Source: Vicinamibacteria bacterium
GTDB lineage: Bacteria > Acidobacteriota > Vicinamibacteria > Fen-336
Assembly: GCA_025923995.1 (NCBI GenBank)
Contig: JAICEW010000028.1
Span: forward strand, 1-33,000
DNA: 33,000 bases
Direction: 5' to 3'
Shown: positions 3,601 through 32,717 of the stretch, piece after piece
Layout of the letters: each line of letters opens with the position of its first letter
How positions within the stretch are numbered: position 1 is the stretch's first letter
Position numbers and translations under genes: made by a program
Notes under the pieces: generated by a model
The model's database searches: none
The model's input: the letters and a program-made list of their open reading frames with translations, nothing else
What the model was told of the DNA's origin: nothing

Positions 3601-4746
3601 CTACCTGCAGGTCGCTCCCGTGAGGTCCAGGCAGAACCCGCGCGGCTCGGCGCGCGGAGCGGCGTTCTTCGCGTGCCGGTAGCGCGAGATCTCCTGGTAG
3701 AGGGCGCGCCGGATGCGGTTCATCACGCCCACCGGCTCGTGCTCGGGAAGCGAGTGCCAGGGCGTGAAGGAGAGGTTCTCGCAGAACGCGTCCTGCTCCG
3801 CCGTGCTGAACACCTGGCGGGGGATCGTCACCCTGGCCACCTTCAGGAACGGGGAGTCCTTCTCCGACCAGAGGACGGTCGCGTCCTCGACCGGCATGTT
3901 CCGGCCGGACACCTGCAGCTGGACGAGGAGGTCGAAGCAGCCCTCGCCCTGGGCCAGCTCCGCCGCGAGCGCTTCGCGCAGACGGTTGTCGCCCTTGCCC
4001 TTCTGCACCTTCCTTGGCTCGCACGGCCGGGCCGAGTACTTCACGAACTGGCTGGGTCCCAGGCGGTACGCGGAGAGGCTGTGGAACTGCGTCTGCAGCA
4101 GGCTGGCGGGCGGCGGCTGCAGGGTGCGGCCGGCGAGGTAGAGCTCGCGCAGGTGCCAGCGCCAGGGCTTCCACGAGGGACCGCCGAAGAACCAGCCGTA
4201 GCGGCTGCCACGCGACAGGGCGGCCGCGAACTCCTCGTAGTCGGGGAGCGTGCGGATGAAGAACCGCGGGCTGTTGATCATCACGAAGTCCTGCGTGGCC
4301 GCGTCCTTCTCCGCGGGCAGGAGCTTTTCCCCCGACACGCCCATCACCTTGAGCGCGAACCCGCGCGCATCGCGGATGCCGTCCGACTGGACGAGCGTGT
4401 TGCCGCTCGAGAAGCGGAGCCACGCGTCGTAGGCTCCCGCCCGCGCGAAGAGGCCGTGACGCAACCGCGGCTCCAGCTCGCCGACCTCCACCCGCGCCTG
4501 GACGCAGCCGTGCGCTTTCGAGTGCACGTCGCGCGTGAAGGGTCGGCCCTGCGCGTGAGCCCCGTCGACCATCGCGACCGACGACGCGACGATGCGGGAC
4601 GTGTAGGCCACCTCGTCGGGCGACACGGAGACGCCCTGCTCGGCGGGCCAGGGCTCGCGCAGGGCGTACGCCAGCCAGGCCCCGATCGCGGCCGCGACGA
4701 CGACCAGCGTGAGGACGAGGCGGCGGAGCCGGCGGGACTTGGCCAC
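3601..4746 (-). CDS. Catalase-like haem protein, membrane-anchored
   Basis: A 381-residue protein read from GTG at 4746, preceded by GAGAGG. Residues about 8-28 are one hydrophobic helix after a basic start (AKSRRLRRLV), so the domain is probably periplasmic and membrane-tethered. The rest matches the small 'catalase family' (y4iL-like): KAHGCVQARVEV with the expected distal His, FSSGNTLVQSDGIRDARGFALKV, DFVMINSPRFFI, QFHSLSAYRLGP, and the C-terminal FTPWHSLPEHEPVGVMNRIRRA. It lacks the length of true catalases (over 480 residues). Relatives include catalase-fold enzymes that act on lipid hydroperoxides, such as coral allene oxide synthase. The gene follows the dihaem cytochrome with an 8-nt gap. 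The proximal haem-ligand Tyr could not be placed with confidence. Confidence 0.82.
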   Translation of the reverse strand: MAKSRRLRRLVLTLVVVAAAIGAWLAYALREPWPAEQGVSVSPDEVAYTSRIVASSVAMVDGAHAQGRPFTRDVHSKAHGCVQARVEVGELEPRLRHGLFARAGAYDAWLRFSSGNTLVQSDGIRDARGFALKVMGVSGEKLLPAEKDAATQDFVMINSPRFFIRTLPDYEEFAAALSRGSRYGWFFGGPSWKPWRWHLRELYLAGRTLQPPPASLLQTQFHSLSAYRLGPSQFVKYSARPCEPRKVQKGKGDNRLREALAAELAQGEGCFDLLVQLQVSGRNMPVEDATVLWSEKDSPFLKVARVTIPRQVFSTAEQDAFCENLSFTPWHSLPEHEPVGVMNRIRRALYQEISRYRHAKNAAPRAEPRGFCLDLTGATCR

Positions 4747-4754
4747 GTTCCCTC

Positions 4755-6794
4755 TCAGTGGATTCCGCAGTCCGGCGGCACGCGTCCGGGCGGCGTCTCC
4801 GGGTCCTGGTGGATCTTCAGGTACTCGACGATCGCCCGCCTGTCGTCGGGGCTGAGCGCGGGTCCGATGACCCCGTACTGCGGGTCGTCCGCGTCCGTCT
4901 TGCCCGGGACGTATCCGGCGCGGAACTCGTGGCCGACGTTGGCGTTTCCGGGCAGGCGGGTGTCGAACCAGAAGCCGTCGCCCCGAGTCGTCACGTCGAC
5001 GCCGACGTTCACGGGGTCGAACGAGCCGGGGCCCACGAAGAAGCGCGCGTCCCGCTCGTCGTGCGGCGAGAGCATCTGGTAGAGCGTGGGCACCGAGCCG
5101 TTGTGCAGGAAGGGGCCGGTCGCCCACACGCCGGCCAGCGGACGCGACTTGTAGGCGGGGACGATCTCGGGAAGGTCCAGGCTGCCGAAGCCGTCCAGGC
5201 ACGCGCGCTGCTCGGGGGTGAACCCGCGCTCGGCGTAGTAGCGCTCGCGCGTCATCAGGCCGAGGAAGTTGAGCGCGAGCCCCAGCGGGACCTGGGTCAT
5301 GCGGACACCGGTGACCGCGGCGGTGGCGCGGTCCAGACGCTCCTTCTCGTAGCGGGCTGCTTTCGCGAGCGCGTCCGCCTGCGGGTCGTGCCGCGCCTCC
5401 GCCTCCGCGACCTGCGCCTCCAGCCGCACGAGGCGACCGCGAGCCTCGGCGAACACGGGCTGGGCGGAGGCGAGCACCTCTTCCGGGGCGAGGCCGCTGC
5501 GCGTGAGATCGACCGTGCGCGAGGCGAAGTTCAGGGCCGCCGTCGGATCCGTGCCCACCTCCGCGATGGGGACGATGGTCAGCTTCCACAGCGGGTCGGT
5601 GTCGGGTCTCAGCGGATCCTCGTAGGCCTTCATGGCCGCGGGCTGCTCGAACGGACCATGGCAGTGCCGGCAGTTCTGCTCGAACAAGGCGCGGCCGTGC
5701 TCCGCCTTGACGCGATCGACCGGGCCCAGGACCTCCTCCGGCCACCGCGGCGGCTGGAGCCGCTGCAGCGTCGTCTCGATGCGATGGAGGTTCTCGACGA
5801 GCACCGACGAGCGGAAGCGCTCGGCGGGCGGCACGGGCCGGCCGTACCGGTCCAGCAGGTGCAGCCGGGCCCCGACGCCGAAGGCCTCGCCCATGTTGCG
5901 CGCCATGGGCTGGCTGACCGAGGCGTTGTACTGGACCCAGTCGAACTTCCAGATGTTCCAGAGGAAGGGGTAGCTCACCGGCGCGTTGCCGACCGAGTCG
6001 TTGGCCCCGTCCAGCTCGTCCGCGAAGACGGTGTTGCCGATGCGCGCGAGGGCATCGGTCCGGCCGAACCCCTCCTCGACGGGGTAGAGGTGCCTGGACT
6101 GCTCGATCCATCCCTGCTCGAGGAACGCGCCGAGCACCTCGCGCAGGTCGTCGCGCAGGCGCTCCTTCCCGCGCGCATAACCGTCCTCGCCCAGGACCCG
6201 CTTGCCGAAGCGGCGGAACTTCAGGGGGTTCATGTACGTGCTCGCCAGCGACGCCGTGAGCGTCGGAACGAAGTGGCCGATCTTCGTGGTGGTGAAGGCA
6301 TGGCTCGCCGGCCCGCCGTCGATGCGGACGGCCGGCCGCCGGCCGGCACGGTCGACCACCAGCTGCCCGGTGTGGCAGGCCGCGCAGCTGATGTCGATCA
6401 CGGCGTCGCCCAGCTCCGGGTCGAACCGCTTCGCGAAACCCACCGGGAGCTGGTCGGGGTTGGCCGCGGTCGGCTCGGGATCCACGATGAAGCCGTACGA
6501 GCGCAGGTGCGCGGGGTCGGCCAGCCGTCTCGTTCCCCACGGCATCTCGAGGTGGACGAGCCAGTCGTAGCGCAGGTTCTTGAGTGACGTGCCCTGCGGC
6601 GTGTAGTAGTAGGCCTGTCGCAAGGCGGCGTCTCGCGCCGTGCCCCAGCCCTGATCGAGGTAGGTGTAGTCCTGGACCTCCGGCAGGCTCGGCACGTGGC
6701 GCGCCGGACGATGGATGAGCAGCAGGCCGAGCAGGACCGCCAGCAGCGCCAGCGATCCCACCAGGCGCAGCAGCCGGACCAGGAAGCGCTTCAC
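4755..6794 (-). CDS. RoxA-like dihaem cytochrome c
   Basis: A 679-residue protein with an N-terminal membrane/signal helix (residues about 5-27), hence exported. Two haem-binding motifs are seen: CAACH (137-141) and CRHCH (375-379). FLWNIWKFDWVQYNAS (about 277-292), the following PMARNMGEAFGV and the C-terminal GVWATGPFLHNGSVPTLYQ are hallmarks of RoxA/RoxB-like members of the dihaem peroxidase/MauG superfamily. The length is also close to RoxA (about 680). RoxA cleaves rubber with O2; other dihaem relatives in Pseudomonas are fatty-acid dioxygenases and diol synthases. Residues about 430-480 form a charged helical insertion. The start overlaps the end of the SMP-30-like gene by 4 nt. The substrate is unknown; the lipase in the same run makes a lipid more plausible than rubber. 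Confidence 0.85.
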   Translation of the reverse strand: MKRFLVRLLRLVGSLALLAVLLGLLLIHRPARHVPSLPEVQDYTYLDQGWGTARDAALRQAYYYTPQGTSLKNLRYDWLVHLEMPWGTRRLADPAHLRSYGFIVDPEPTAANPDQLPVGFAKRFDPELGDAVIDISCAACHTGQLVVDRAGRRPAVRIDGGPASHAFTTTKIGHFVPTLTASLASTYMNPLKFRRFGKRVLGEDGYARGKERLRDDLREVLGAFLEQGWIEQSRHLYPVEEGFGRTDALARIGNTVFADELDGANDSVGNAPVSYPFLWNIWKFDWVQYNASVSQPMARNMGEAFGVGARLHLLDRYGRPVPPAERFRSSVLVENLHRIETTLQRLQPPRWPEEVLGPVDRVKAEHGRALFEQNCRHCHGPFEQPAAMKAYEDPLRPDTDPLWKLTIVPIAEVGTDPTAALNFASRTVDLTRSGLAPEEVLASAQPVFAEARGRLVRLEAQVAEAEARHDPQADALAKAARYEKERLDRATAAVTGVRMTQVPLGLALNFLGLMTRERYYAERGFTPEQRACLDGFGSLDLPEIVPAYKSRPLAGVWATGPFLHNGSVPTLYQMLSPHDERDARFFVGPGSFDPVNVGVDVTTRGDGFWFDTRLPGNANVGHEFRAGYVPGKTDADDPQYGVIGPALSPDDRRAIVEYLKIHQDPETPPGRVPPDCGIH

Positions 6795-7801
6795 GCGGCC
6801 GCGCCGCCGAAAGCGGGTGGGAGCCCCGCCACGCTCGAGCGGAGCTTCACGAGCCGACCCGAAGCCCCGCAGGTCACGAACACCGTGCGCCGGTCCTCAC
6901 CGCCGAAGCAGAGGTTCGACGGCAGTGGAGTCGGGCTGCCCACGTCGATCTGGAGGAACTGCAGGAGCTCGCCCTTCGGAGACACGATGGCGAGGCCGCC
7001 GTTCGAGCGCGGATCGGCGCCGTTCGGCAGCATCGCGGCCACCCACACGTTGCCCTCCGCATCCACCTTCATCGAGTCGAGGATGGCCTGGCCGGGCAAC
7101 GCGGCGGTCAGCAGGAAGGAGCCGTCGAGCGTCCGCGGGTTTTTCGCGATCACCCCCGGCGCCTGCAGGTCCCAGCCCCGGACCCGGCGTGTGTACGTCT
7201 CGGCCACGTACAGGCGCCTGCCATCGGGCGAGAGCGCGATCCCGTTGGGCGAGTCGAGCGGGAAGATGGCTTCGCGGATGGAGGAGCCGTCCGTCCGCGC
7301 GTAGTAGACGCCCGTCACGTCCCGATCGCGCGGCCGTGACTTGCCCCAGTCGGTGAACCAGCAGCCGCCCGCGTCGTCGAAGACCAGGTCGTCCGGCCCC
7401 TTCAGTGGGAGGGCCATGGGCTGCTTCGTGACGGGATCGGTCGCGGGGAACGTCGTGTAGACGGTCTCGACCGCGCCGGTCGCCACGTCGACCCGCTGGA
7501 TCGAGCCGCCCTGGTAGTCCGGCGGCTGGGGCCCCGTGATCCACAGAGGACCCACCGGAATCCACACGAAGCCGCCGCTGTTGCACACGTAGAGCTTGCC
7601 GTCGGGCCCGAAGGCCGCGCCGTTGGGGCTCCCTCCCGTCGTGGCGACCGTCGCCTTGGACCCGTCCGCGCGCACGCGCGTCAGCCGGCCGCCCTTCACC
7701 TCCGCCACGATCACGCTGCCGTCGAGGCAGGCGACGGGCGACTCGGGGTACTCGAGCCCCTCGGCCACGACCTCGAACGGCGACTCGTCGAATCGGCGCA
7801 T
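6791..7801 (-). CDS. SMP-30/gluconolactonase-like beta-propeller
   Basis: A 336-residue protein without a signal peptide. The ATG at 7801 follows GGAGG by 4 nt. Repeated strand motifs (GKLYVCNSGG, GGCWFTDWG, RRLYVAETYT, GNVWVAAM) show a six-bladed propeller of the SMP-30/LRE family. Candidate divalent-metal ligands at the usual places are Glu20 (LEYPESP), Asn186 (DSPNGIALSPDG) and Asp242 (ILDSMKVD). The family hydrolyses lactones or related esters. The gene overlaps the RoxA-like gene by 4 nt and follows the kinase gene by 33 nt, so it belongs to the same run. Its apparently cytoplasmic location, unlike its exported neighbours, is a point against a single compartmental pathway. Confidence 0.85.
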   Translation of the reverse strand: MRRFDESPFEVVAEGLEYPESPVACLDGSVIVAEVKGGRLTRVRADGSKATVATTGGSPNGAAFGPDGKLYVCNSGGFVWIPVGPLWITGPQPPDYQGGSIQRVDVATGAVETVYTTFPATDPVTKQPMALPLKGPDDLVFDDAGGCWFTDWGKSRPRDRDVTGVYYARTDGSSIREAIFPLDSPNGIALSPDGRRLYVAETYTRRVRGWDLQAPGVIAKNPRTLDGSFLLTAALPGQAILDSMKVDAEGNVWVAAMLPNGADPRSNGGLAIVSPKGELLQFLQIDVGSPTPLPSNLCFGGEDRRTVFVTCGASGRLVKLRSSVAGLPPAFGGAAA

Positions 7802-7834
7802 CCCGCCTCCGCTAGCCTGTGCGAGGGACGAACG

Positions 7835-10018
7835 TCAAGCCAGGATTCCCGCCGCCCGCAGCCCCGCGAGGTGCGGCTCCGCGCGGTCCGACCGTCCCGC
7901 CTGCAGTCCGATCTCACGCGCGTAGCTCTCCGCGGTGAAGACCGGGTGGATCGCCTGCACGCGCTGCCAGGCCGCGCGCGCCTCCTCGATGCGCCCCTGC
8001 GCGCCGAGCGCGTTCGCCACCATGACCATGGCCAGGAAGAAGTGGGGCTGCAGCTCGATCGTCCGTCCCGCGCTCTCCGCCGCCTCGTCTGGATGGCCCT
8101 GGCGCTCGGCGACCGCGCCCTTGAAGTACAGCCAGTACGGGAAGGAGGGATGGTCCGGTGTCGTCTCGATCAGCCGGTCCAGGATGCGGCGCGCTTCGGC
8201 GGCCTCGGCATCGTCCCCGCCCACGCCGAGGCTCAGCGCGAGATAGCCCCAGGCCGGAAGGTGGAACGGCGCGATCGCAACCGCGCGGCGCAGGGCGCCG
8301 ACGGAGCGCTCGTGGTGCGAGCAGTGGTACCAGACGAGGCCCGCGTTCTCGAGCACGCTCGGGTCGCGGGGAGCGAGCTGCACCGCCCGGTCGGCGGCCG
8401 CCTCCGCCTCCGCCCGCTCCTCCTCCACGTGAGGCGTGAGGAGGTGGATCACGCGCTCGATGAGGTAGAGGCCCTGGAAGGCGTGGGCCGCCGCGTAGGA
8501 CGGGTCGAGCGCGACCGCCCGGCGCACCTGGTCGAGCGCCTGCTCCAGCCCGTCGGGACTGAAGGCGTGGTTCCAGAAATGGTAGGCGCGGTGCAGCAGG
8601 CCCCAGGCGTCCAGGTGCTCGGGCGAGGAACGGTGCGCGCGCTCCGCGTTGTCGCGGATGATCTGGCCTCCCGTCGCGCCCACGATCGCCTGCGCGATCT
8701 CCTCCTGCACCGCGAAGAGGTCCTTGAGCTGCCTGTCGTACGCCTTCGACCAGACCTGCGCGCTGGTCTCCGCGTCGGTGAGCGATGCCAGCACGCGGAT
8801 GCGCTCCCCCGCGCGGCGGAGGTTCCCGGTCAGGACGTAGCGCACGCGCAACGTCCGCGCCGTCTGTGCGACGTCGACCTCGGGGCCGCGAAAGCGGAAG
8901 GACGCCAGCTCCGAGGCCACTCGCAGGTCGGGCACGCCGCCCAGGGCGACGGTGATCTCGGAGGCGATGCCGGCCGCGATGTAGCCGTCGTCGGGCTCGC
9001 CCGAGAGGCTCGCGAAGGGCAGCACGGCGATCGATGCGCGCTCCGTGCCGGGCGCCGGCGGCCGGCTCGGACCGCCGCGGCCGAATGGCTCGTGGCCGGG
9101 CGGCGTGCGATCCTGGGTCGGTGCGTCGCGATCGAGCGACAGCGCCGTCCAGCGCTCGTCCTCGGCCGCCTCGCCTCCTCCGCCGGCGACGTCGCCCGCC
9201 ACGCGCCGCAGGTCCTGCTCGACCTCGCGCATGCCGGCGAACCGGTCTTCGGGCCTCCGCGCCATGGCCCGGGCCACGACCTTTTCGAGGGCCTCCGGCA
9301 CCGCCGGCCGGACCGAACGCAGCGGGATCGGGATGCCGGAGTTCAGCAGGTGGAAGTGCTCGGCCGCGCTGCGGCTCCTGAAGGGCAACGCGCCCGCGAG
9401 CATCTCGTAGAGCATCACCCCGAGGGAGTAGACGTCCGAGCGCGCGTCCGCGATCCGGCCGATGGACTGCTCGGGTGACATGTAGAAGGCGGTCCCCATC
9501 ACGGTGCCGTCGCGCGTGAGGCGCTCGGGCGGGTCCGTTCCGTCGCCGCCCACGAGCGTCGCCAGGCCGAAGTCGAGCACCTTCGCCCGGCCGTCGCCGC
9601 AGATCATCACGTTGGCCGGCTTGAGATCGCGGTGGACGACGCCGGCCGCGTGGGCGGCCGCCAGGGCGTCCGCGACCTGGATGGCGATGCGGACCGCTTC
9701 CACGATGGGCAGGCCCCGCTCACCGACCGCGTGGCTCAGCGGCTGGCCGTCGAGGTGCTCCATCACGATGAAGTCCAGGCCCTCGTCGCTCGCGATGTCG
9801 TGGACGGTCACGATGTGCGGGTGGTTGAGGGCGGCCGCGGCGCGGGCCTCCCGGAGGAAGCGGGCCCGGCGCACGTCGTCGCCCGACCGCTCCGTGGGCA
9901 GCACCTTCAGGGCGACGAAGCGGTGGAGGCGCGTGTCACGGGCCTTGTACACGACGGCCATGCCCCCCTCGCCCAGCTTCTCCATCACCTCGTAGTGGAG
10001 GAGCCTGCGGCCGATCAT
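7835..10018 (-). CDS. Ser/Thr protein kinase with TolB-like and TPR domains
   Basis: A 727-residue soluble protein. Residues about 9-270 are a Hanks-type kinase: glycine loop GEGGMAVVY (16-24), Lys38 (VALKVL), HRDLKPANVM with Asp131, DFGLA at 149-153, and GTAFYMSPEQ. All catalytic residues are present. A Pro/Gly-rich linker follows, then a TolB-like region (SIAVLPFASLSGEPDDGYIA, with TLRVRYVLTGNLRR further on) and TPR-type helices to the C-terminus. No transmembrane segment is seen between kinase and sensor parts, unlike many PknB proteins. The ATG at 10018 overlaps the stop of the lipase gene by 4 nt, so translation is coupled. The open frame continues upstream to 10873, but that part is antisense to the lipase and is excluded. 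Confidence 0.92.
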   Translation of the reverse strand: MIGRRLLHYEVMEKLGEGGMAVVYKARDTRLHRFVALKVLPTERSGDDVRRARFLREARAAAALNHPHIVTVHDIASDEGLDFIVMEHLDGQPLSHAVGERGLPIVEAVRIAIQVADALAAAHAAGVVHRDLKPANVMICGDGRAKVLDFGLATLVGGDGTDPPERLTRDGTVMGTAFYMSPEQSIGRIADARSDVYSLGVMLYEMLAGALPFRSRSAAEHFHLLNSGIPIPLRSVRPAVPEALEKVVARAMARRPEDRFAGMREVEQDLRRVAGDVAGGGGEAAEDERWTALSLDRDAPTQDRTPPGHEPFGRGGPSRPPAPGTERASIAVLPFASLSGEPDDGYIAAGIASEITVALGGVPDLRVASELASFRFRGPEVDVAQTARTLRVRYVLTGNLRRAGERIRVLASLTDAETSAQVWSKAYDRQLKDLFAVQEEIAQAIVGATGGQIIRDNAERAHRSSPEHLDAWGLLHRAYHFWNHAFSPDGLEQALDQVRRAVALDPSYAAAHAFQGLYLIERVIHLLTPHVEEERAEAEAAADRAVQLAPRDPSVLENAGLVWYHCSHHERSVGALRRAVAIAPFHLPAWGYLALSLGVGGDDAEAAEARRILDRLIETTPDHPSFPYWLYFKGAVAERQGHPDEAAESAGRTIELQPHFFLAMVMVANALGAQGRIEEARAAWQRVQAIHPVFTAESYAREIGLQAGRSDRAEPHLAGLRAAGILA

Positions 10019-10902
10019 CGCGCTCCCTCCGCCGCGCGCGCGGCCGCCAGCGCCTCCAGCTTCGCGAGGTAGCGCGCCATCTCGTGCTCCTTGGGGTTCT
10101 CCCGGCCCAGGTGCGCGGCGAAGGACGTCAGCAGGTATCGCTCGGCCAGCGGCTCCGTGAAGAACTCCCAGGTCCCCTTGTCGGTCAGCCACAGCTCGGA
10201 GCCGAGGTGACGGAAGAAGCCGTCCTCGGCGGCGCCGCGCGTCTCCCACGGAAGCAGGGGCACGGGATCGTCGTGGTTCACGACGCGCAGCAGCGGCAGC
10301 CCGCGGAAGCGCGCGACCCCCGCCTCGTTGGTGACCTTGGGCTGGCCGAACGTCACCACGCGCGCGACGGGGAACCCCGCCAGCTGCACGCGCATCGCCA
10401 TCAGGACGGCGAGGGCGCCTCCGAGGCTGTGGCCGGTGATCCGCGTCTCGACGCCCGGCTTGAGGAGCGGCCGCACGAACTTCCAGGTGGCGTCCGCGTC
10501 GTCGAGGAAGCCCTGGTGCACCTCGATGCCCAGGTCGGGCGCCTTGACCTTCGCGTAGTCCGCATCCTCCGCCGCGTTCAGCAGGTTCGCCGTCCCCCGC
10601 ACCGCCACCCACTGGACGTGTTGCGTGCCGTCCACCTCCACGAACGCGCGCACGTCCACCCCGCCCAGCGTGGTCACGGTGAGCTCCGGCGTCGGTCCCA
10701 CGATCGCGCGGATGGCCGGCTCGTCCTGGTAGGCGGCGTTGGACCTGCGGGCGAACTCGAGCATCTCCGCGAAGGTCAGGGGCGGGGCGGCGGGGGTCGC
10801 GGGCGCGGCCGCCGACGAAGGACCGCCGCCACGGCAGGCCGGGAGCCACAGGGCGAGCAGCACGCCTACCCACGCCTTCGTGCGCAGCGGGTGGCCGGTC
10901 AT
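10015..10902 (-). CDS. Lipoprotein class 3 lipase
   Basis: A 295-residue protein if read from the ATG at 10902; an ATG at 10920 would add six residues, and neither has a clear Shine-Dalgarno. The N-terminus has a basic start, a hydrophobic core and a lipobox (LWLPAC, Cys23), so it is probably lipid-anchored. A Pro/Ala linker follows, then the alpha/beta-hydrolase fold of the class 3 lipases (PF01764): VQWVAVRGTANLLN, VHQGFLDDADATW, the nucleophile elbow ITGHSLGGALA, and the acid region VVNHDDPVPLLPW. It is the first gene of a leftward run that goes on to a kinase and three oxidative or hydrolytic enzymes. The expected substrates are acyl glycerides or phospholipids. Confidence 0.88.
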   Translation of the reverse strand: MTGHPLRTKAWVGVLLALWLPACRGGGPSSAAAPATPAAPPLTFAEMLEFARRSNAAYQDEPAIRAIVGPTPELTVTTLGGVDVRAFVEVDGTQHVQWVAVRGTANLLNAAEDADYAKVKAPDLGIEVHQGFLDDADATWKFVRPLLKPGVETRITGHSLGGALAVLMAMRVQLAGFPVARVVTFGQPKVTNEAGVARFRGLPLLRVVNHDDPVPLLPWETRGAAEDGFFRHLGSELWLTDKGTWEFFTEPLAERYLLTSFAAHLGRENPKEHEMARYLAKLEALAAARAAEGAR

Positions 10903-11012: not shown

Positions 11013-11051
11013 GACGTAGACACTCTACGTCTATGGACGTAGAGTGTCTAC
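11013..11051. promoter_or_regulatory. Multi-half-site palindromic operator before padR
   Basis: GTAGACACTCTACGTC (11016-11031), four bases, then its exact reverse complement (11036-11051) form a 36-bp perfect inverted repeat ending 4 nt before the padR ATG. The unit GACGTAGA occurs at 11013-11020 and 11036-11043, and its complement TCTACGTC at 11024-11031. Several overlapping dyads with 3- and 4-bp spacers therefore exist. PadR proteins bind such dyads to repress their own operons, so autoregulation of padR and the permease is the likely role. Confidence 0.75.
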
Positions 11052-11055
11052 TACC

Positions 11056-11412
11056 ATGGCCCTCACCCCCGACGACGGCCGCCTCGAGCTGCTCCAGGGC
11101 ACGCTCGACATGCTCATCCTCCGCACCTTGCAGTGGGGCCCCCGGCACGGCCACGGCATCGGCCAGGCCATCCGCGCCCAGTCGGACGAGCTGCTGAGGG
11201 TCGAGACCGGCTCGCTCTATCCCGCGCTCCACCGCCTGGTGAAGCGCGGATGGCTGAAGGCGGAGTGGGGGATCAGCGAGGCGAACCAGCGGGCCAGGTA
11301 CTACCGCCTCACCGCGACGGGCAAGGCGCAGCTCGCGCGCGAGCGCGACCGCTGGTCGCAGCTCGTGCGCGCGATCGGGCTGGTCTTGAACCCGGAGCCG
11401 GGCAAGGAGTAG
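11056..11412 (+). CDS. PadR-family transcriptional regulator
   Basis: A 118-residue winged-helix protein of the PadR s1 type. It carries LLQGTLDMLILRTLQWGPRHGHGI, the recognition segment ETGSLYPALHRLVKRGWLKAEW, the wing YYRLTATGKAQL and a short C-terminal dimer helix. The ATG at 11056 lies directly behind the palindrome without a Shine-Dalgarno. A GTG at 11044 inside the palindrome is the alternative start, and a leaderless transcript is possible. Only 3 nt separate its stop from the ADOP permease, the standard padR-ADOP arrangement of acidobacteria. It probably represses this operon until a ligand, often a small aromatic or a drug, is bound; the ligand is unknown. Confidence 0.92.
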   Translation: MALTPDDGRLELLQGTLDMLILRTLQWGPRHGHGIGQAIRAQSDELLRVETGSLYPALHRLVKRGWLKAEWGISEANQRARYYRLTATGKAQLARERDRWSQLVRAIGLVLNPEPGKE

Positions 11413-11415
11413 CGC

Positions 11416-14037
11416 ATGAAGCCCCCCGACTGGGACGAGCTCGACGACGAGATCCGCGGCCACCTGGCCCTCAGCATCCGGGAGCGGATCGAGCGCGGCG
11501 AGGCTCCCGAGGCGGCACGCCTGGCCGCGCTCAAGGAGTTCGGCAACGTGGACCTGACGCGCGACTCCATCCGCGGCGTCTGGCGGCCCCGCTGGCTCGA
11601 CGCGGCGGAGGCGCTCGTCCGCGACATCCGTTTCGCCTTCCGCTCGCTGCTGCGCGCGAAGGGCCTGACGGCCACCGTGGTGGTGACGCTCGCCCTGGGC
11701 ATCGGGGCCAACGCGGCCATCTTCAGCGTCGTCCGCAGCGTGCTCCTGCGTCCCCTGGTCAACCGGGACGCGGACCGGCTCATCTACATCCGCCAGACGG
11801 CGCTGGGCATCGGAACCGAGAACCTCACCTTCTCGATGCCGGAGGTCCGGGACCTCACCTCGCGCGCCACCACCATCGCGTCGTTCGGCGACTTCTCGAC
11901 CGTCAACTTCACGATGGTCGGCGTGGGGCCGGAGCCCCGCGTCGTGACCGCAGGCGTCGTCAACGGTTCGTTCTTCGAGGTGATGGGGCTTCGCCCGGCC
12001 GTCGGCCGCCTGCTCCACGCCGGCGACGACGGGTCCAGGGCGGCGCCGGTTGCGGTCCTGACCCACCGCTTCTGGACGAGCACGTTCGGGGGCGATCCGG
12101 CGGTGGTGGGGCGGCCCCTTCGCCTGGGGCCGGGCACCGCGACCGTGGTCGGCGTGCTCGAGCCGTCCATCCCCTATCCGGCCGAGACCCAGATCATCGC
12201 CAACGTCGTCACCAGCCCCCACCATCTCGGCGCGACGATGGTCGACGACCGCACCCACCGCATGACGGAGCTGTTCGGGCGGCTGGCTCCGGGCGCCACG
12301 GTGGAGGCGGCGCGCGCCGAGCTCGACTCCCTGCACGCCTCGATGACGAGCGCGCACCCCAAGGCGTACTCCCAGCGTGCGCAGGTCCGGCTGCACGTCG
12401 CCACGCTCCCCGAGCAGATCGCCTCGCCGGCGCGGACGATCCTCCTGCTGCTGCTGGCGGCGGCCGCGGTGGTGTTCGTGATCGCGTGCTCGAACGTCGC
12501 CAACCTCATCCTGGGTCGGTCGGTCCGCCGCGAAGGGGAGCTGGCGCTGCGGGCCGCGCTGGGCGCGGGACCGGGAGCGCTGCGGCGCACGCTCCTGGCC
12601 GAGAGCCTGCTCCTGTGCGGCGCGGGGGCCGCGCTGGGGCTGGTGCTGGCGCAGCCCCTGGTCGCGATGGCCGGCCGCTACGCGGCGCGCTTCTCCGTCC
12701 GCGCGCTCGAAGCCACGGTGGACGCGAGCGTGCTGTGGGTGGGGGTGGGGCTGGCGGCGGTCGCGGCCGTGCTCCTCGCGTACGTCCCGCGGCTCCCGTC
12801 ACCCGACCGCCCCGGCGGGCTGGGGCTGGCCGCCGGCAGCGCGCGCATGACGCCGGGCACCAGCCGCCGCCTGCGGATCTTCGCCACCACCCAGATCGCG
12901 TGCTCGTTCGTGCTGCTGGCGGGCGCGTTCATGCTCGTGTCCGTCCTCACGGCCCTGCAGACCGCGCGCACGGGCTACGAGATGCGCAAGGTCCTGGCCA
13001 TCGACGTCCCGCCTCCGGACCCCAACAGCGGAGACCGGATGCACGCCTACTTCGAGGAGGCGACGCGGCGGATCGGGGCGCTGCCGGGAGTCGAGAACGT
13101 CGCCGTCGGGATGATCGTGCCCTGGCGGGACCACAACCCCGGCCTGAAGTTCCGCTTCGCGTTCGAGGGCTACCAGCCCGCCGACGGCGAAGAGGACCCG
13201 ACCTGCCGCTTCCGCCCGGTGTCTCCCCGCTTCTTCGCGACGCTCGGAGTCCCGCTGCTCGCGGGCCGGGAGTTCACGGACCAGGACCGCGCCGACACCG
13301 AGCGCGTGGCGATCGTCAGCCAGAGCGTGGCGCGGCGTGTCTTCTCGAACGGCGAGGCGCTCGGCCGGCACGTGGGCTGGACCAGCCGCGGGCTGAAGGG
13401 CGCCCACCGCATCGTCGGCGTGGTGGCGGACGTGGACGACGAGAACGTCGTGCAGGAGCCGACGCTGACCGTGTACTACCCGCTGCGGCAGATGGGCCTG
13501 GCCAGCCGCCTGTTCGTTCGCGCCGAAGGCGATCCCTACGCGCTCGTCCCCTCCGTGACCCGCACGCTCCGCGAGATGTCCGCCGAGCAGGCGGTCGAGC
13601 GCCCCCGGACGCTCGAGGACGTGCGCGCGCAGGTGCTGACGCCGGAGCGGCTGAACGCGTTCGTGTTCTCGGCGTTCGGGGGCATCGCGCTGCTGATCGC
13701 GGTCGTGGGCGTCGCGGGCGTGCTGGCCTTCTCGGTGAGCACGCGCACGCGCGAGTTCGGCATCCGCCTGGCGATCGGATCGACGCCCGCGCAGCTGCTC
13801 ACGGGAATCCTGAAGGAAGGCGTGGTGATCGTCACGGCCGGCATCACGGCCGGCGCCGTGCTCGGCCTCGCGTTGGCTCGCGTGGCCTCCGCCTCCCTGG
13901 GAACCGCACGCATGCCGGGACTCCTGCCCGCGGTCGGCGCCGCCACCGTCCTGGCCGCGGCGGCGGTGATCGCTTCGCTGGTGCCGGCCGCGCGCGCCTC
14001 ACGTGTCGACGTGCTGCAGGCCCTCAGGTCCGAATAG
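11416..14037 (+). CDS. ADOP-type permease (FtsX/MacB-like)
   Basis: An 873-residue protein. Residues 1-70 are a soluble helical prefix (DELDDEIRGHLALSIRERIE onward) of the kind seen on PadR-linked permeases. Then come a first helix (about 87-107, VVVTLALGIGANAAIFSVV), a MacB-like periplasmic core, three helices of an FtsX domain (about 340-470), and a second copy of core plus FtsX domain (to 873, ending ARASRVDVLQALRSE). This internal duplication is the mark of the ADOP family. No ABC ATPase gene is adjacent, so it is either orphan or uses a distant ATPase. Substrates of the family are poorly known; export of lipids, peptides or drugs is assumed from MacB. It is co-transcribed with padR. Confidence 0.9.
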   Translation: MKPPDWDELDDEIRGHLALSIRERIERGEAPEAARLAALKEFGNVDLTRDSIRGVWRPRWLDAAEALVRDIRFAFRSLLRAKGLTATVVVTLALGIGANAAIFSVVRSVLLRPLVNRDADRLIYIRQTALGIGTENLTFSMPEVRDLTSRATTIASFGDFSTVNFTMVGVGPEPRVVTAGVVNGSFFEVMGLRPAVGRLLHAGDDGSRAAPVAVLTHRFWTSTFGGDPAVVGRPLRLGPGTATVVGVLEPSIPYPAETQIIANVVTSPHHLGATMVDDRTHRMTELFGRLAPGATVEAARAELDSLHASMTSAHPKAYSQRAQVRLHVATLPEQIASPARTILLLLLAAAAVVFVIACSNVANLILGRSVRREGELALRAALGAGPGALRRTLLAESLLLCGAGAALGLVLAQPLVAMAGRYAARFSVRALEATVDASVLWVGVGLAAVAAVLLAYVPRLPSPDRPGGLGLAAGSARMTPGTSRRLRIFATTQIACSFVLLAGAFMLVSVLTALQTARTGYEMRKVLAIDVPPPDPNSGDRMHAYFEEATRRIGALPGVENVAVGMIVPWRDHNPGLKFRFAFEGYQPADGEEDPTCRFRPVSPRFFATLGVPLLAGREFTDQDRADTERVAIVSQSVARRVFSNGEALGRHVGWTSRGLKGAHRIVGVVADVDDENVVQEPTLTVYYPLRQMGLASRLFVRAEGDPYALVPSVTRTLREMSAEQAVERPRTLEDVRAQVLTPERLNAFVFSAFGGIALLIAVVGVAGVLAFSVSTRTREFGIRLAIGSTPAQLLTGILKEGVVIVTAGITAGAVLGLALARVASASLGTARMPGLLPAVGAATVLAAAAVIASLVPAARASRVDVLQALRSE

Positions 14038-14079: not shown

Positions 14080-16449
14080 CTACTCCGCGCGCAACGCGAC
14101 CGCGGGATCGACGCGGGCGGCCCGCCGCGCCGGCAGGCAGAGCGCGGCGACCGCGACCGCGGCCAGCAGCAGGGCGCCGGCGGCGAACGTCCCGGGATCT
14201 CTGGGGCTCAGCTCGTAGAGCAGATCGCCCAGGACGCGCGTGGCGCCCCAGGCGCCGCCGAGTCCCAGGGTCACGCCCAGGCCCACCAGGACGAGCCCCT
14301 GGCGCACGACGCCCGCGACCACGCGAGCGGGGGGCGCGCCCAGCGCCAACCGCACGCCGATCTCGCGCGTGCGCAGCGCGACGTCGTAGGCGATCACGCC
14401 GTAGGTCCCCACCGCCGCCAGCGCGAGAGCCAGCAGCGCGAAGCCGGAGAGGAGCAGCATGCTGAAGCGCCGCTCGGCCACCGAGCCGGCCACCAGCTCG
14501 GACAGGGGGGCGATCCGGGCCGAGGCCAGTCGCGGGTCGACCTCGGCCAGCACGCGGCGGATCGGCTGGATCGCCGATTCCGGGGGCACTCGCGTCCGGA
14601 CCAGCGGGAACGAGAAGGGGAACGGCGTCTGGGCGAAGGGCGTGTAGATCGCGGCCTCCGCGGGATCGTCGAGGCCGCTGAAGCGGACGTCGGCCACGAC
14701 GCCGACCACCTCGCGCCACTCGGGCGACTCGCCGGGGTTCCGCAGTCGGACGTGCGCGCCGACCGCCGTCCCGGAGCCGAAGAGGCGTCGCGCGAGCGTG
14801 CGGTTGATCATCACGACCTTGGCCGCGTCCTTGGTGTCCCGCCGGTCGATGGGCCGGCCTTCGACCACCGGCGTGCCCAGCGCGCGGAAGTAGTCGTCCG
14901 TCACGGCGATGAAGTACGCGCGCTGCGCGCCGGGCTCCGCCGCGGGCCTCTCGCGCACGTCGAAGGCGGTGGCGCGCTGGGCGGTCTCGGGCGGCAACCC
15001 GGTGCCGCTGCCGGCCGCCGCAACGCCCGGCAGCGCGCGCAGACGGTCGATCACGTCCTCCAGGACGCGTGTACGGCGTTCGGGGTCGTCGTAGCGCCAG
15101 AGGCCCACGCCCAGCGCCACCAGGTCGTCCGGGACGAAGCCGGGATCGACGGTGACGAGCCGGTGGAAGCTGTGGACGAGCAGGCCAGCGCCCTCGAGCA
15201 CGACCAGCGAAAGGGCCAGCTCTCCGACCACGAGGGCGCGCCGGACGCCCCGCCCGGCGGTGCGCGTGCCCCGTGATCCGTCGCGCAGCGCATCCATGCC
15301 CCTGCGGCCGGCGGCCACGAGCAGCGGCGCCAGCCCGAACATCGACGCCGTGACCGTCGACAGGGCGGCCGCGAAGACGAGCACGGTCGCGTCGATACGC
15401 ACCAGCGCCACCCGCGGCACGCCCGCGGGAGCGAGCGTGCGCAGCACGTGGACCGCCGCGCCCGCGAGCAGGACCCCGGCGGCGCCACCCAGCACGGCCA
15501 GCACGAGGCCCTCCGTGACGAGCTGGCGCGCGATGCGGGCCTCGCCCGCCCCGAGCGCGCGCCGGACCGCCATCTCGCGGCCGCGGGTCGTCGCCCGCGT
15601 CAGCACCAGGTGGCCGACGTTCGCGCACGCGATCAGCAGCGTCAGGCCGACCGCGCCCAGCAGGATCAGCAGCGGCCGCCGCACGCCGCCGAGCACGCGG
15701 TCGGCCAGCGGCTCCAGCTCGATCGAGACGCCGGCGTTCGTGTCCGGATGCTCCCTGGCCAGCGCGGCCGAGATCGCCGCCGCCTCGGCCCGCGTGGTGG
15801 CCGCGGGCACCTCCGCCTTGCGCAGGAGCACCACGCCGAAGATGCGCAGCGCCCGGTTCCGGAGCTGGTCCGGGTTCCGGTCCATCGCCGCCCCCATCGT
15901 CGACCACACCTCGAAGCGGCGGTCGGGATACTCGAACGCGGGCGGCATCACGCCCACGATCGTGTACGGCCGGTCGGCCAGCTCGATCGTGCGGCCCAGG
16001 ACGTCGGGCCGGCCGGCGTAGCGGCGCAGCCAGAGCGAGTGCGCGATCACGGCCAGCGTCTGTCCGTCCTCGTCCGGCCGGAACGTGCGCCCCAGCGCGG
16101 CCCCGCCGAGCAGGGGGAAGAAGCGCCTGGAGACGACCGCGCCCAGGACGGGCTCGGCATCCGCGCCGAACCGCACGTCGTAGCGGTTCGACGCCCAGCA
16201 GGCCGCGTCCTCGAGCGAGAGGCTGCGCGCCCGCAGGTCGTCGAAGTCCGGGATGGAGGTGCGCCCGACCATCAGGCGGTCGGCCGCCGGGTAGGGCAGG
16301 GCGCGCAGCAGGATCCCGTGGACCATGGTGAACAGCGCGACGTTGGCGCCGATGCCCAGGGCCAGCGTGGCCACGGCCACGAGGGCGAACGAGGGGCTGC
16401 CGCGGAGGGTCCGCAGCGCGAAGCGCAGGTCCTGCCAGAGGGTGTCCAT
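14080..16449 (-). CDS. ADOP-type permease (FtsX/MacB-like), second copy
   Basis: A 789-residue protein starting at the ATG at 16449 (MDTLWQDLRFALRTL). The open frame runs further upstream, but that part is antisense to the neighbouring gene's end and is not family-like. It has a first helix (SFALVAVATLALGIGANVALF), a MacB-type periplasmic core, an FtsX domain with NVGHLVLTRATTRGREMAVR, a second core, and a final FtsX domain (VIAYDVALRTREIGVRLALG, then ending RRAARVDPAVALRAE). It lacks the soluble prefix of the padR-linked copy and has no PadR gene beside it. Instead it follows the ASK-like gene by 41 nt in the same direction. It converges on the first ADOP gene with only 42 nt between stops. 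Confidence 0.9.
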   Translation of the reverse strand: MDTLWQDLRFALRTLRGSPSFALVAVATLALGIGANVALFTMVHGILLRALPYPAADRLMVGRTSIPDFDDLRARSLSLEDAACWASNRYDVRFGADAEPVLGAVVSRRFFPLLGGAALGRTFRPDEDGQTLAVIAHSLWLRRYAGRPDVLGRTIELADRPYTIVGVMPPAFEYPDRRFEVWSTMGAAMDRNPDQLRNRALRIFGVVLLRKAEVPAATTRAEAAAISAALAREHPDTNAGVSIELEPLADRVLGGVRRPLLILLGAVGLTLLIACANVGHLVLTRATTRGREMAVRRALGAGEARIARQLVTEGLVLAVLGGAAGVLLAGAAVHVLRTLAPAGVPRVALVRIDATVLVFAAALSTVTASMFGLAPLLVAAGRRGMDALRDGSRGTRTAGRGVRRALVVGELALSLVVLEGAGLLVHSFHRLVTVDPGFVPDDLVALGVGLWRYDDPERRTRVLEDVIDRLRALPGVAAAGSGTGLPPETAQRATAFDVRERPAAEPGAQRAYFIAVTDDYFRALGTPVVEGRPIDRRDTKDAAKVVMINRTLARRLFGSGTAVGAHVRLRNPGESPEWREVVGVVADVRFSGLDDPAEAAIYTPFAQTPFPFSFPLVRTRVPPESAIQPIRRVLAEVDPRLASARIAPLSELVAGSVAERRFSMLLLSGFALLALALAAVGTYGVIAYDVALRTREIGVRLALGAPPARVVAGVVRQGLVLVGLGVTLGLGGAWGATRVLGDLLYELSPRDPGTFAAGALLLAAVAVAALCLPARRAARVDPAVALRAE

Positions 16450-16490: not shown

Positions 16491-17816
16491 TTACGGCCTG
16501 TTGCGGCTCGCCTCGACCAGCGCCTCCTCGAGACCGCCTGCCCAGGCGACCCCATCGCCCCGCCTCTCGCGCGCCTCGCGAATGAGGCGCAGGTTGCGCG
16601 CGGTCGTCTCCGGCTCCCACCCCTCGCGCACGTTCGCGAGCGCGTCGGCGAGGGCGAGCACGGCCGCCTCCTCATCCTTCCCCAGCACCGCCAGCTCCAG
16701 GCGCGCGGCGTGATCCCAGAAGTCGGGCCTGCCCGCCGCGATGCGGCGCTCGATCGCGTAGCGAACGACCGGGAGCAGCGCCTCCCGGCGGGGATCGGGC
16801 GGCTCCTTGACCGCCATCAACGTCACGGCGTTGACGCCGGGATAGGCGTCGCGCGGGTCCGCCTGGAAGCCCTGGAGGCAGGCGCCGATCGCCTTGTCGA
16901 GCAGACCGCGCGCGAGCAGGGACTGCCCGGCCCTGGCGGCCGCCTCCCAACGGTCCTTGTAGACGCGGCCGAGGATGCCGTAGGTCTCGCTGCTGGGCCC
17001 GCGCTCGTCGATGAGCGCGGTCAGGACCCGCTCGGCCTCGTCCCCGCGGCCGTCGCGGTTGAGCGCGAGGCCGAGCTGCTCGCGCACCATCACGGTGGCG
17101 GCCAGCGGCGGCGCCATGTGTTCGACGAGCGCGATCATGTCCTTCCAGGCCTTGACCGCCCGATAGGACAGGAAGAGGTCGACGACGACGCCGGAATCGG
17201 CCGTGGCCACGTCCTGGAGGGCGGCCTCGACCGCACGAACGGCCTCCGCGCCCTGCTTCCGGGCCGCCGCGAGCTGCTCCTTGACCTGATGCGAGTACCG
17301 AACGCGGTCGCGGAAGACGTCCGCCCTGAGGCCCTGCACGTCCGGGAAGCCGTCGACCAGCTGGAAGAGCGGGCTGTCCTTGGCACCCGCGCGCGCCTCC
17401 TGGAGGCGGCGCGCGAGCGCGCTCCGGACCGCGGCGTCCGGGGCTCCGTCGGGAGTGAGCCGGTAGGGCAGCCCTCGCAGCGGCGCCACGTCGAACGGGA
17501 GCTGTCCCATCCCTTCGGCGAACACCAGCACGGTGCTCCAGGGCCGGACGGCGTGTCGCACGCCCAGCTCGTAGAACACGTTCGCGTTGGCCGTGGTGAG
17601 ATCGGCCACGGCGTACTCGCACAGGATCAGCCGCTCGAACATCGGCGTGTGGATGACGCCGCCGGTCTGCTCCTCGTCCGCACGGATCGGCTCCAGGCGG
17701 GCATCGGAGATGGCCGGTGCGATCAGGTCCCGATAGACGGCGTCGAAGTCGATCAGCAGGCCGTTCGCGGCGGTCTTTCGCCCGAAGGGCATCAAGACGA
17801 AACAGAGTGGGTGCAG
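16491..17816 (-). CDS. ASK-like DRHyd/TPR protein (DUF4071), apparent CTG start
   Basis: A 441-residue protein. The N-terminal about 130 residues form a nucleoside-deoxyribosyltransferase/TIR-like domain: HPLCFVLMPFGRK, then FERLILCEYAVADLTTANAN and VFYELGVRHAVRPW, whose D-T-N-N-YELG motif matches the catalytic loop of deoxyribosyltransferases. The rest is helical and TPR-like, as in the 'MAP3K TRAFs-binding' family (DUF4071), which also forms the N-terminal half of animal ASK kinases. The kinase itself is absent. The family start CFVLMPFG lies upstream of the ATG at 17792. Reading on upstream gives CTG CAC CCA CTC TGT behind GGGAGG with 5 nt, so the CTG at 17816 is proposed. Aravind and colleagues have linked this domain pair to biological-conflict systems. 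The gene is probably co-transcribed with the ADOP permease. Confidence 0.82.
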   Translation of the reverse strand: MHPLCFVLMPFGRKTAANGLLIDFDAVYRDLIAPAISDARLEPIRADEEQTGGVIHTPMFERLILCEYAVADLTTANANVFYELGVRHAVRPWSTVLVFAEGMGQLPFDVAPLRGLPYRLTPDGAPDAAVRSALARRLQEARAGAKDSPLFQLVDGFPDVQGLRADVFRDRVRYSHQVKEQLAAARKQGAEAVRAVEAALQDVATADSGVVVDLFLSYRAVKAWKDMIALVEHMAPPLAATVMVREQLGLALNRDGRGDEAERVLTALIDERGPSSETYGILGRVYKDRWEAAARAGQSLLARGLLDKAIGACLQGFQADPRDAYPGVNAVTLMAVKEPPDPRREALLPVVRYAIERRIAAGRPDFWDHAARLELAVLGKDEEAAVLALADALANVREGWEPETTARNLRLIREARERRGDGVAWAGGLEEALVEASRNRP

Positions 17817-29435: not shown

Positions 29436-29478
29436 CGTCTCAAGACGGTGAGACGTGAGTCTCAGACGGCGTGAGACG
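29436..29478. promoter_or_regulatory. Four alternating GTCTCA/TGAGAC half-sites
   Basis: CGTCTCA (29436-29442), TGAGACG (29449-29455), GTCTCA (29459-29464) and TGAGACG (29472-29478) alternate in orientation with spacers of 6, 3 and 7 nt. Three overlapping dyads result. The block lies about 70 nt upstream of the ADOP start at 29551 and 146 nt upstream of the TonB receptor, an ideal place for a cooperative repressor or activator. No regulator gene is adjacent, so the binder must be encoded elsewhere. Confidence 0.65.
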
Positions 29479-29550
29479 AGCGCGTCGAACTTCCCGGCCT
29501 CCCTGCGCGTTAACGAGGCGGGGGGACGACCGTCCGCCGAGGAGGTGAGC

Positions 29551-32038: not shown

Positions 32039-32455
32039 TCAGCCGGGCAGGACGTCGAAGCGGCGACGTCCCTTGATCCGATAAACGCCGAAGTCGCGCC
32101 GGTCGGTCGTGAAGACCCGGTTGGTCTCGAGCTCCTCCGCGAGCACCACCAGCGTGGCGTCGGCGTAGTCCATCGGCAGGTCTGCGTACTGCTGCATGAG
32201 CGCGCGCGCACGCCGCAGCGACGCCTTGGTGGCCGGCACCAGGACGGCCGCCCCGGAGAGGAAGAAGTCCACGCACGCCTCGCGCCCACCCCCGACCGCG
32301 CCCAGCAGGTGTGTGGCCTCGGTCAGGACGGCTTCGGTGCTCACGACCGCGCGGTCCCACTCCGCGAAGAAACGAGCGCACACCATATGGTGCTTCTGGC
32401 TCCGGTCGAGCAGCGAGACCAGCGCGCCGGTGTCGAGCAGCAGCTCACCGGCCAC
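32039..32455 (-). CDS. vapC: PIN-domain toxin (VapC-like)
   Basis: A 138-residue PIN-domain protein starting with GTG at 32455. The acidic site residues are Asp8 (LLLDTGALVSLLD), Glu46 (STEAVLTEATHLL), Asp96/Asp99 (LPMDYADATLVVLAEE) and Asp118 (VFTTDRRDFGVYR). VapC toxins are Mg-dependent RNases that cut specific tRNAs or rRNA. The start lies inside the end of the antitoxin gene (11-nt overlap), so toxin synthesis is translationally coupled to the antitoxin. All catalytic residues look intact. Confidence 0.9.
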   Translation of the reverse strand: MAGELLLDTGALVSLLDRSQKHHMVCARFFAEWDRAVVSTEAVLTEATHLLGAVGGGREACVDFFLSGAAVLVPATKASLRRARALMQQYADLPMDYADATLVVLAEELETNRVFTTDRRDFGVYRIKGRRRFDVLPG

Positions 32456-32699
32456 GGCGCAGCGACTCGAGGATGTGGGCGCGATGCTTGTCCGCCAGGT
32501 CGGGCACGCCCGACTCCAGCGAGCCGATCAGGCCTCGCACCCGATCCGCGGGACGCGCCGCCGTGCCCGCCGCGACGCCGAGGAACTCGCGGAGCGCCAG
32601 GCGCACGATGTCCGACTGCTTCCTCTGCAGCCGCCGCGCCGCACGCTCCAACGCGCGGCTCAGCTCGGCGGGCAGCCGCACGGTCAGCTGTGCCTCCAT
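32445..32699 (-). CDS. vapB: Ribbon-helix-helix antitoxin (VapB-like)
   Basis: An 84-residue protein from the ATG at 32699 with GGGAGGG just upstream. The N-terminal strand and helices (AQLTVRLPAELSRALERAA, then KQSDIVRLALREFLG) are a ribbon-helix-helix DNA-binding domain. The C-terminal part (DRVRGLIGSLESGVPDLADK onward) is the expected toxin-wrapping tail. The partner is the PIN toxin encoded with an 11-nt overlap. Antitoxins of this type repress their own promoter together with the toxin, and a small dyad lies upstream. A longer in-frame reading to 32795 is not family-like. Confidence 0.87.
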   Translation of the reverse strand: MEAQLTVRLPAELSRALERAARRLQRKQSDIVRLALREFLGVAAGTAARPADRVRGLIGSLESGVPDLADKHRAHILESLRRGR

Positions 32700-32717
32700 G
32701 GTCCCTCCCTGCACGTC

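What the first reader, a model, noticed from the sequence alone, without database searches (positions are those of the whole stretch)
3601..10902. Five-gene lipase, kinase, lactonase, dihaem oxygenase and catalase-like operon
A lipid-anchored class 3 lipase, a Ser/Thr kinase, an SMP-30-like lactonase, a RoxA-like dihaem cytochrome and a catalase-fold protein lie in one direction. Gaps or overlaps are -4, 33, -4 and 8 nt. Dihaem relatives oxygenate unsaturated fatty acids in Pseudomonas, and catalase-fold enzymes convert fatty-acid hydroperoxides (coral allene oxide synthase). A coherent reading is release of fatty acids, peroxidation, conversion of the hydroperoxide and opening of a lactone: a bacterial oxylipin-like pathway with its own kinase. 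The weak points are the cytoplasmic look of the lactonase and unknown substrates.
Basis: inference. Interest (0 to 1): 0.65.

Follow-up and report, generated by a model that had tools for sequence, protein, structure and literature searches.

The report
Lipid-oxidation operon: dihaem plus catalase-like pair
A soil acidobacterium carries an operon whose core, a two-haem oxygenase paired with a small catalase-like enzyme, recurs in acidobacteria, Pseudomonas and marine bacteria, sometimes as one fused protein and often beside a lipid-cutting enzyme, which suggests an undescribed bacterial route for making or clearing oxidised fatty acids.

Summary
The five genes are real, same-strand and spaced as described. 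Four of them (kinase, SMP-30, dihaem, catalase-like) keep this order in three other acidobacteria. The lipase is found only here, but elsewhere a patatin-like phospholipase takes its place beside the module. The dihaem protein is not RoxA. It belongs to NCBIfam NF040606, which also covers genes matching the P. aeruginosa oleate 10S-dioxygenase and diol synthase. Among 80 related loci, 66 have the catalase-like gene separate, same-strand and next to the dihaem gene, and 5 have both in one ORF; eight distinct genomes carry the fusion. The same catalase-like family lies beside lipoxygenases in both of the only two lipoxygenase-bearing genomes of the class (of 193), and beside COX-type haem peroxidases in four loci. 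Its closest solved structures are a mycobacterial catalase-related protein and coral allene oxide synthase. I conclude that this is a lipid-oxidation module: an acyl hydrolase supplies fatty acids, the dihaem oxygenates them, and the catalase-like enzyme processes the hydroperoxide. Synthesis versus detoxification is open. Against the allene-oxide reading, the window enzyme has Val-His where published fatty-acid-hydroperoxide enzymes have Thr-His. The SMP-30 protein lacks an export signal. No activity was tested.

The parts
10015..10902 (-). Lipoprotein class 3 lipase (lipobox LPAC, GHSLGG nucleophile motif)
   Evidence: PF01764 1.1e-20; best PDB match fungal triacylglycerol lipases 2e-14. Not conserved: only the own gene and one weak partial match in 193 genomes of the class. 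Stop overlaps the kinase start by 4 nt.
7835..10018 (-). Ser/Thr kinase with C-terminal TPR region, no predicted TM
   Evidence: PF00069 1.3e-45, TPRs; no TM. Full-length relatives at 53, 50 and 44% identity in L026, L104 and L102, each directly before SMP-30.
6791..7801 (-). SMP-30/gluconolactonase-like beta-propeller, no export signal
   Evidence: PF08450 6.9e-38; PDB 7ris 'beta-propeller lactonase' 224 bits. Conserved YPE, PDD, PNG and DSM motifs in seven loci.
4755..6794 (-). Membrane-anchored dihaem cytochrome c, NF040606: CAACH (His141), CRHCH (His379), PFLHNGSVP (His564)
   Evidence: NCBIfam 502 bits; N-terminal TM 9-27; haem and MauG-motif histidines align with those of the oleate dioxygenase-like protein.
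3601..4746 (-). Membrane-anchored small catalase-fold haemoprotein: R72, V74-H75, R111, N158, R346xxxY350
   Evidence: PF00199 2e-7; fold search best hits 3e4y, 3dy5, 1u5u; key residues; N-terminal TM 10-28.
11016..11051 (.). Perfect inverted repeat (16-bp arms, 4-nt spacer) between the divergent lipase and PadR genes; candidate operator, not shown to act on the operon
   Evidence: 24-bp core 11022-11045 found once in the window (0 expected) and once in the whole genome; arms read from the sequence.

Best explanation
A lipid-oxidation module of the cell envelope. The lipoprotein lipase (in relatives a patatin-like phospholipase) releases unsaturated acyl chains. The membrane-anchored dihaem cytochrome, a relative of P. 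aeruginosa oleate 10S-dioxygenase, inserts O2 to give a fatty-acid hydroperoxide. The adjacent membrane-anchored catalase-fold haemoprotein then reduces or rearranges that hydroperoxide, which is toxic if it accumulates. The cytosolic SMP-30 hydrolase probably acts on a product that enters the cell, and the kinase with TPRs is a regulator. Shown here: gene identity, haem and catalytic motifs, topology signals, conserved order, fusion and lipid-enzyme neighbourhood. Inferred: substrate, chemistry, direction of the pathway and the roles of kinase and SMP-30.
For: Dihaem and catalase-like adjacent on the same strand in 66 of 80 loci and fused in 5 more; eight distinct fused genomes. Kinase-SMP-dihaem-cat order in L026, L102 and L104; patatin-SMP-dihaem-cat in Thalassotalea and (patatin ORF split in two frames) Pseudoalteromonas; patatin-kinase-fusion, 4-nt overlap to 6-nt gaps, in L042 and L094. 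Patatin relative in 11 of 20 non-Pseudomonadaceae loci, 0 of 60 Pseudomonadaceae. Catalase-like family flanked by lipoxygenase in both class genomes that have one (2 of 193) and by An_peroxidase in four loci. NF040606 covers genes matching PA2077/PA2078 (529 and 488 bits), which sit beside the window clade in the tree. PA2077 overproduction is toxic unless its hydroperoxide is consumed (PMC4496055). Fold neighbours 3e4y, 3dy5 and 1u5u.
Against: Val, not Thr, precedes the distal His; Thr-His is named a hallmark of fatty-acid-hydroperoxide catalases (reference title in PMC10813956). The inter-haem Trp of 10S-DOX is Tyr289 in the window. Pseudomonas loci have no patatin of this kind in the fetched flanks. 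In the fusions the catalase domain has lost the haem-ligand Tyr (Glu, or Asp in one row) and lies on the cytoplasmic side, so it is not plainly an enzyme there. SMP-30 has no export signal in the loci inspected. True catalases rank only slightly below the allene oxide synthase in the fold search.
Confidence: 0.55

Rival explanations
1. Envelope peroxide defence: the dihaem protein is a cytochrome c peroxidase and the catalase-like protein a catalase or organic-hydroperoxide peroxidase. Together they remove H2O2 and lipid peroxides and make no dedicated product; the lipase or patatin excises damaged acyl chains.
For: Intact catalase-type distal Val-His and proximal Arg-Tyr in the window. Closest solved structure is the 33-kDa mycobacterial catalase-related protein, known to me (from memory, not checked) as an organic-hydroperoxide peroxidase. 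The family name is cytochrome c peroxidase. A patatin removing oxidised acyl chains fits repair equally well.
Against: The only characterised matches inside NF040606 that I could place are fatty-acid oxygenation enzymes. The catalase-like family sits beside lipoxygenases and COX-type peroxidases, families that make hydroperoxides. The protein is shorter than a true catalase and matches only part of the catalase profile.
Confidence: 0.3
2. Isoprenoid or rubber cleavage: a RoxA-type oxygenase cuts polyisoprenoids or carotenoid-like lipids, and the other genes process the aldehydes and lactones.
For: PF21419 RoxA-like haem domain and a weak match to RoxA 4b2n.
Against: RoxA, RoxB and RoxC equivalog scores are 37-47 bits against cut-offs of 900-1000; same subfamily as the oleate dioxygenase genes; acyl-ester hydrolases beside the module. 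The fold search gave no match to RoxA, but it gave no significant match at all and is inconclusive.
Confidence: 0.07
3. Two unrelated units: a conserved dihaem/catalase pair for one job, with kinase, SMP-30 and lipase co-transcribed by chance in this lineage.
For: The lipase is unique to this genome; Pseudomonas has the pair without SMP-30, patatin or this kinase.
Against: Kinase and SMP-30 stay in the same order in four acidobacterial genomes, the kinase at 44-53% identity, and SMP-30 precedes the pair in three marine gammaproteobacteria; unrelated acyl hydrolases occupy the first position in two architectures.
Confidence: 0.08

Closest known systems
P. aeruginosa oleate 10S-dioxygenase / 7,10-diol synthase (PA2077/PA2078, 'FadCcp'; PMC4496055)
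   Same: Same NCBIfam subfamily NF040606; two CXXCH haems and the HNGSV motif; envelope-located; hydroperoxide maker coupled to a hydroperoxide consumer in one operon.
   Different: 27-29% identical, a separate clade; partner is a catalase-fold protein instead of a second dihaem protein; inter-haem residue Tyr, not Trp. The P. aeruginosa-like genome G213 carries both systems.
Catalase-lipoxygenase fusions (coral AOS-LOX; Acaryochloris, Anabaena) and the cyanobacterial catalase-haem dioxygenase fusion (PMC11719350, PMC5617202)
   Same: Catalase-fold domain coupled in one operon or polypeptide to a fatty-acid oxygenase.
   Different: Here the oxygenase is a RoxA/FadCcp-type dihaem cytochrome; the window catalase has Val-His; in the fused forms the haem-ligand Tyr is lost and a TM helix separates the domains.
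Mycobacterial 33-kDa catalase-related protein (3e4w/3e4y)
   Same: Closest solved structure by profile and by fold; short catalase core.
   Different: About 20% identity; Leu before the distal His; a dihaem partner was not looked for.
RoxA/RoxB/RoxC rubber oxygenases
   Same: Share the RoxA-like C-terminal haem motif.
   Different: Far below all three equivalog cut-offs.
SMP-30-type beta-propeller lactonase (7ris, 8djf)
   Same: Full-length match, 224 bits.
   Different: Substrate unknown here; conserved linkage to a haem module is new to me.

Membership tests
NF040606 di-haem cytochrome c peroxidase subfamily | score above curated cut-off 150 bits over the full length | tested here: met
   502 bits, positions 4-523 of 524
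RoxA/RoxB/RoxC rubber oxygenases | equivalog score above 900-1000 bits | tested here: not met
   36.5, 44.0 and 46.7 bits
FadCcp (10S-DOX / diol synthase) | two CXXCH haem sites plus PY/F-x-HNGSV motif | tested here: met
   His141, His379, His564 align with His130, His375, His553
FadCcp (10S-DOX / diol synthase) | inter-haem Trp of the dioxygenase (W251 mature numbering in PA2077, W272 with signal peptide) | tested here: not met
   Tyr289 in the window, Trp in the Pseudomonas pairs
FadCcp (10S-DOX / diol synthase) | clusters with PA2077/PA2078 in a tree | tested here: not met
   neighbouring but separate clade, 27-29% identity
FadCcp (10S-DOX / diol synthase) | oleate to hydroperoxide activity | not testable with these tools
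   needs protein assay
Catalase-related fatty-acid hydroperoxide enzymes (cAOS/cHPL type) | catalase fold with distal His, Asn and proximal Arg-x-x-x-Tyr | tested here: met
   H75, N158, R346, Y350; 3dy5 and 1u5u among the top three fold hits
Catalase-related fatty-acid hydroperoxide enzymes (cAOS/cHPL type) | Thr before the distal His | tested here: not met
   Val74 in the window; Thr in the fused forms and in L040, L080
Catalase-related fatty-acid hydroperoxide enzymes (cAOS/cHPL type) | linked to a fatty-acid oxygenase | tested here: inconclusive
   linked or fused to a dihaem protein of the oleate-dioxygenase subfamily, whose own activity is untested
Monofunctional haem catalase | full-length catalase profile and H2O2 disproportionation | tested here: inconclusive
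   PF00199 30.9 bits against cut-off 25, best stretch profile positions 44-141 of 383; activity not testable
Class 3 lipase | PF01764 with GHSxG nucleophile | tested here: met
   74.4 bits, cut-off 22; ITGHSLGG in sequence
SMP-30/gluconolactonase | PF08450 and conserved metal-site motifs | tested here: met
   131 bits; YPE, PDD, PNG, DSM invariant

The most novel reading that the evidence does not exclude
A third, undescribed class of catalase-coupled oxylipin synthases. A FadCcp-type dihaem oxygenase takes the place of lipoxygenase or COX-type dioxygenase, is fed by a dedicated phospholipase and controlled by its own Ser/Thr kinase, and is widespread in Acidobacteriota, Gemmatimonadota, Pseudomonas and marine gammaproteobacteria. 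In some lineages a pseudo-catalase domain is fused across the membrane to the oxygenase as a sensor or scaffold.
Probability: 0.35. Interest if true: 0.8.

Novelty: new variant of a known kind. Interest (0 to 1): 0.6.

Why it matters
Bacterial oxylipins are known to signal in P. aeruginosa, but few bacterial synthesis routes are described. If the dihaem/catalase pair makes or clears fatty-acid hydroperoxides, one experiment on a laboratory Pseudomonas would assign a function to a gene pair present in dozens of species and now named only 'peroxidase' and 'catalase'. It would also extend the recurrent theme of a catalase coupled to a fatty-acid oxygenase to a third, unrelated oxygenase family.

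Tried and rejected
Five-gene order as a conserved unit: rejected, since the lipase is found only here. RoxA membership: rejected. Fold search with the dihaem model (pLDDT 83) gave no significant PDB match, not even RoxA or MauG, so I treat it as uninformative. Fusion as proof of substrate channelling: rejected, because the TM helix puts the two domains on opposite sides of the membrane and the fused catalase domain lacks the haem-ligand Tyr. Paper searches for an earlier description of the dihaem/catalase pair or fusion found none in the open-access library; two key catalase papers were not held, and the PDB lactonase entries led to no paper. The 80 loci are the best of 552, so Pseudomonas is over-represented.

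Full report
OBSERVATION. Codon usage agrees with all five as coding, though the model was trained in part on these genes. Domain assignments are solid for lipase, kinase, SMP-30 and dihaem, and modest but real for the catalase-like protein. The dihaem and catalase-like proteins each have one N-terminal hydrophobic helix. The lipase has a lipobox. SMP-30 and kinase have neither.

WHAT THE DIHAEM PROTEIN IS. It belongs to NCBIfam NF040606 with 502 bits (cut-off 150) and is far from the RoxA, RoxB and RoxC equivalogs. To place it against the characterised fatty-acid enzymes I searched 25 genomes of the genus of a P. citronellolis locus for the RoxA-like motif. One genome (G213) had a tandem pair whose lengths (624 and 634 aa), haem-histidine positions (130/365 and 130/375) and order match PA2078-PA2077 as published (PMC4496055). 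Some motif letters differ from the published table (CSMCH and CSSCH in the PA2077-like protein), so I call them PA2077/PA2078-like. Both score 488-529 bits to NF040606. In a tree they lie beside, not inside, the clade of the window protein (quick search, SH-aLRT 83% for the grouping). The haem histidines and the MauG-motif histidine align; the inter-haem Trp is Tyr289 in the window. The same genome also carries a window-type dihaem plus catalase-like pair (L183).

WHAT THE CATALASE-LIKE PROTEIN IS. Profile search and fold search both put the mycobacterial 33-kDa catalase-related protein first, with coral allene oxide synthase (3dy5, 1u5u) next in the fold search and true catalases just behind (model pLDDT 77.5). 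Arg72, His75, Arg111, Asn158 and Arg346-xxx-Tyr350 are present, so a haem enzyme is likely. The residue before the distal His is Val in the window and its nearest relatives, Ala in Pseudomonas and in the lipoxygenase-linked L030, and Thr in the fused forms and in L040/L080. [quoted passage not shown] the window does not meet that mark.

LINKAGE. In the class of the window 16 of 100 relatives searched have the catalase-like gene, and 29 of 193 have an NF040606 gene over the cut-off. L026 keeps kinase-SMP-dihaem-cat in order at 51-58% identity. A scan of about 85,000 species genomes gave 80 kept loci. In 66 the catalase-like gene is separate, on the same strand and next to the dihaem gene; in 5 both lie in one ORF. 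Of the 60 Pseudomonadaceae loci 59 have it, and the remaining one stops at a contig end. Counting the class genomes too, eight distinct genomes carry the fusion. L102 and L104 add two more kinase-SMP-dihaem-cat loci with full-length kinase relatives. Thalassotalea, Pseudoalteromonas and an Oceanospirillales genome have SMP-dihaem-cat. This is far beyond chance proximity.

LIPID CONTEXT. A patatin-like phospholipase relative lies within the fetched flank of 11 of 20 non-Pseudomonadaceae loci and of none of the 60 Pseudomonadaceae loci (Pfam Patatin over its cut-off in most members tested, with L092, L094 and L075 giving no Pfam hit). In L042 and L094 it opens an operon patatin-kinase-fusion with a 4-nt overlap or 5-6-nt gaps. 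In Thalassotalea it precedes SMP-dihaem-cat. In Marinobacterium it follows the dihaem gene with a 4-nt overlap, with no catalase-like gene there. The window has an unrelated class 3 lipase in the same first position. Separately, the catalase-like family sits between two lipoxygenase genes in L030 and next to a weaker lipoxygenase in L036. These are the only two genomes with a lipoxygenase among 193 of the class. It lies beside COX-type An_peroxidase genes in L031, L034, L036 and L037. Known catalase-lipoxygenase and catalase-haem dioxygenase fusions (PMC11719350) make the same point: catalase-fold proteins travel with fatty-acid oxygenases.

MECHANISM. Most likely: acyl release, then O2 insertion by the dihaem protein, then consumption of the hydroperoxide by the catalase-like protein, at the outer face of the inner membrane. 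Published work shows that PA2077 alone is toxic through its hydroperoxide and that PA2078 relieves this (PMC4496055), which gives a reason for strict coupling. Substrate, product and the direction (signal synthesis or peroxide clearance) are inferred. SMP-30 shows no export signal in the loci inspected, so 'opening of a lactone' would need the product to enter the cell; this step has no direct support.

LIMITS. The fused catalase domain keeps Thr-His but has Glu (Asp in one row) where the haem-ligand Tyr should be, and a TM helix separates it from the dihaem part; it may be a scaffold or sensor. In the tree all fused catalase domains form one clade far from the free ones, so two distant catalase-like lineages have been coupled to the same dihaem family. 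The dihaem fold search was uninformative. No earlier description was found, but the library holds only open-access papers.

Noticed in passing
window 11016-11051: Perfect 36-bp palindrome (16-bp arms) between the divergent lipase operon and a PadR gene followed by a large permease-like gene; the core occurs once in the genome.
   Followed up: partly
L031, L034, L082-L086, L088: Clusters combining RoxA-like dihaem genes (mostly tandem pairs) with, variously, an Old Yellow Enzyme-like oxidoreductase, GMC oxidoreductase, a small membrane protein and, in L031/L034, COX-type peroxidase plus a catalase-like protein that has lost the distal His (RFNQ); looks like another lipid or sterol oxidation pathway.
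   Followed up: partly
L075-L079, L042, L094, L136: Fused catalase-dihaem proteins in which the catalase domain is predicted cytoplasmic and lacks the proximal Tyr: a pseudo-catalase joined to a periplasmic dihaem domain.
   Followed up: partly
L040, L080: A second catalase-like (Thr-His) plus dihaem pair set among ABC1-type kinase, small phasin-like and FG-GAP/UnbV genes; a different neighbourhood from the window type.
   Followed up: no
window 16491-17792: Protein with TPR-S sensor and MAP3K/TRAF-binding-like domains, about 3 kb from a caspase-like Peptidase_C13 protein (20843-22780); possibly conflict-system related.
   Followed up: no
window 32039-32729: PIN-domain toxin plus ribbon-helix-helix antitoxin pair.
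   Followed up: no
window 11056-14037, 14080-16449, 29455-32031: Three large permease-like ORFs (MacB/FtsX look) that cluster together by similarity, one behind a PadR regulator.
   Followed up: no
L183 (genome G213): A genome with the PA2077/PA2078-like operon also carries the window-type dihaem/catalase pair about 140 kb away.
   Followed up: partly
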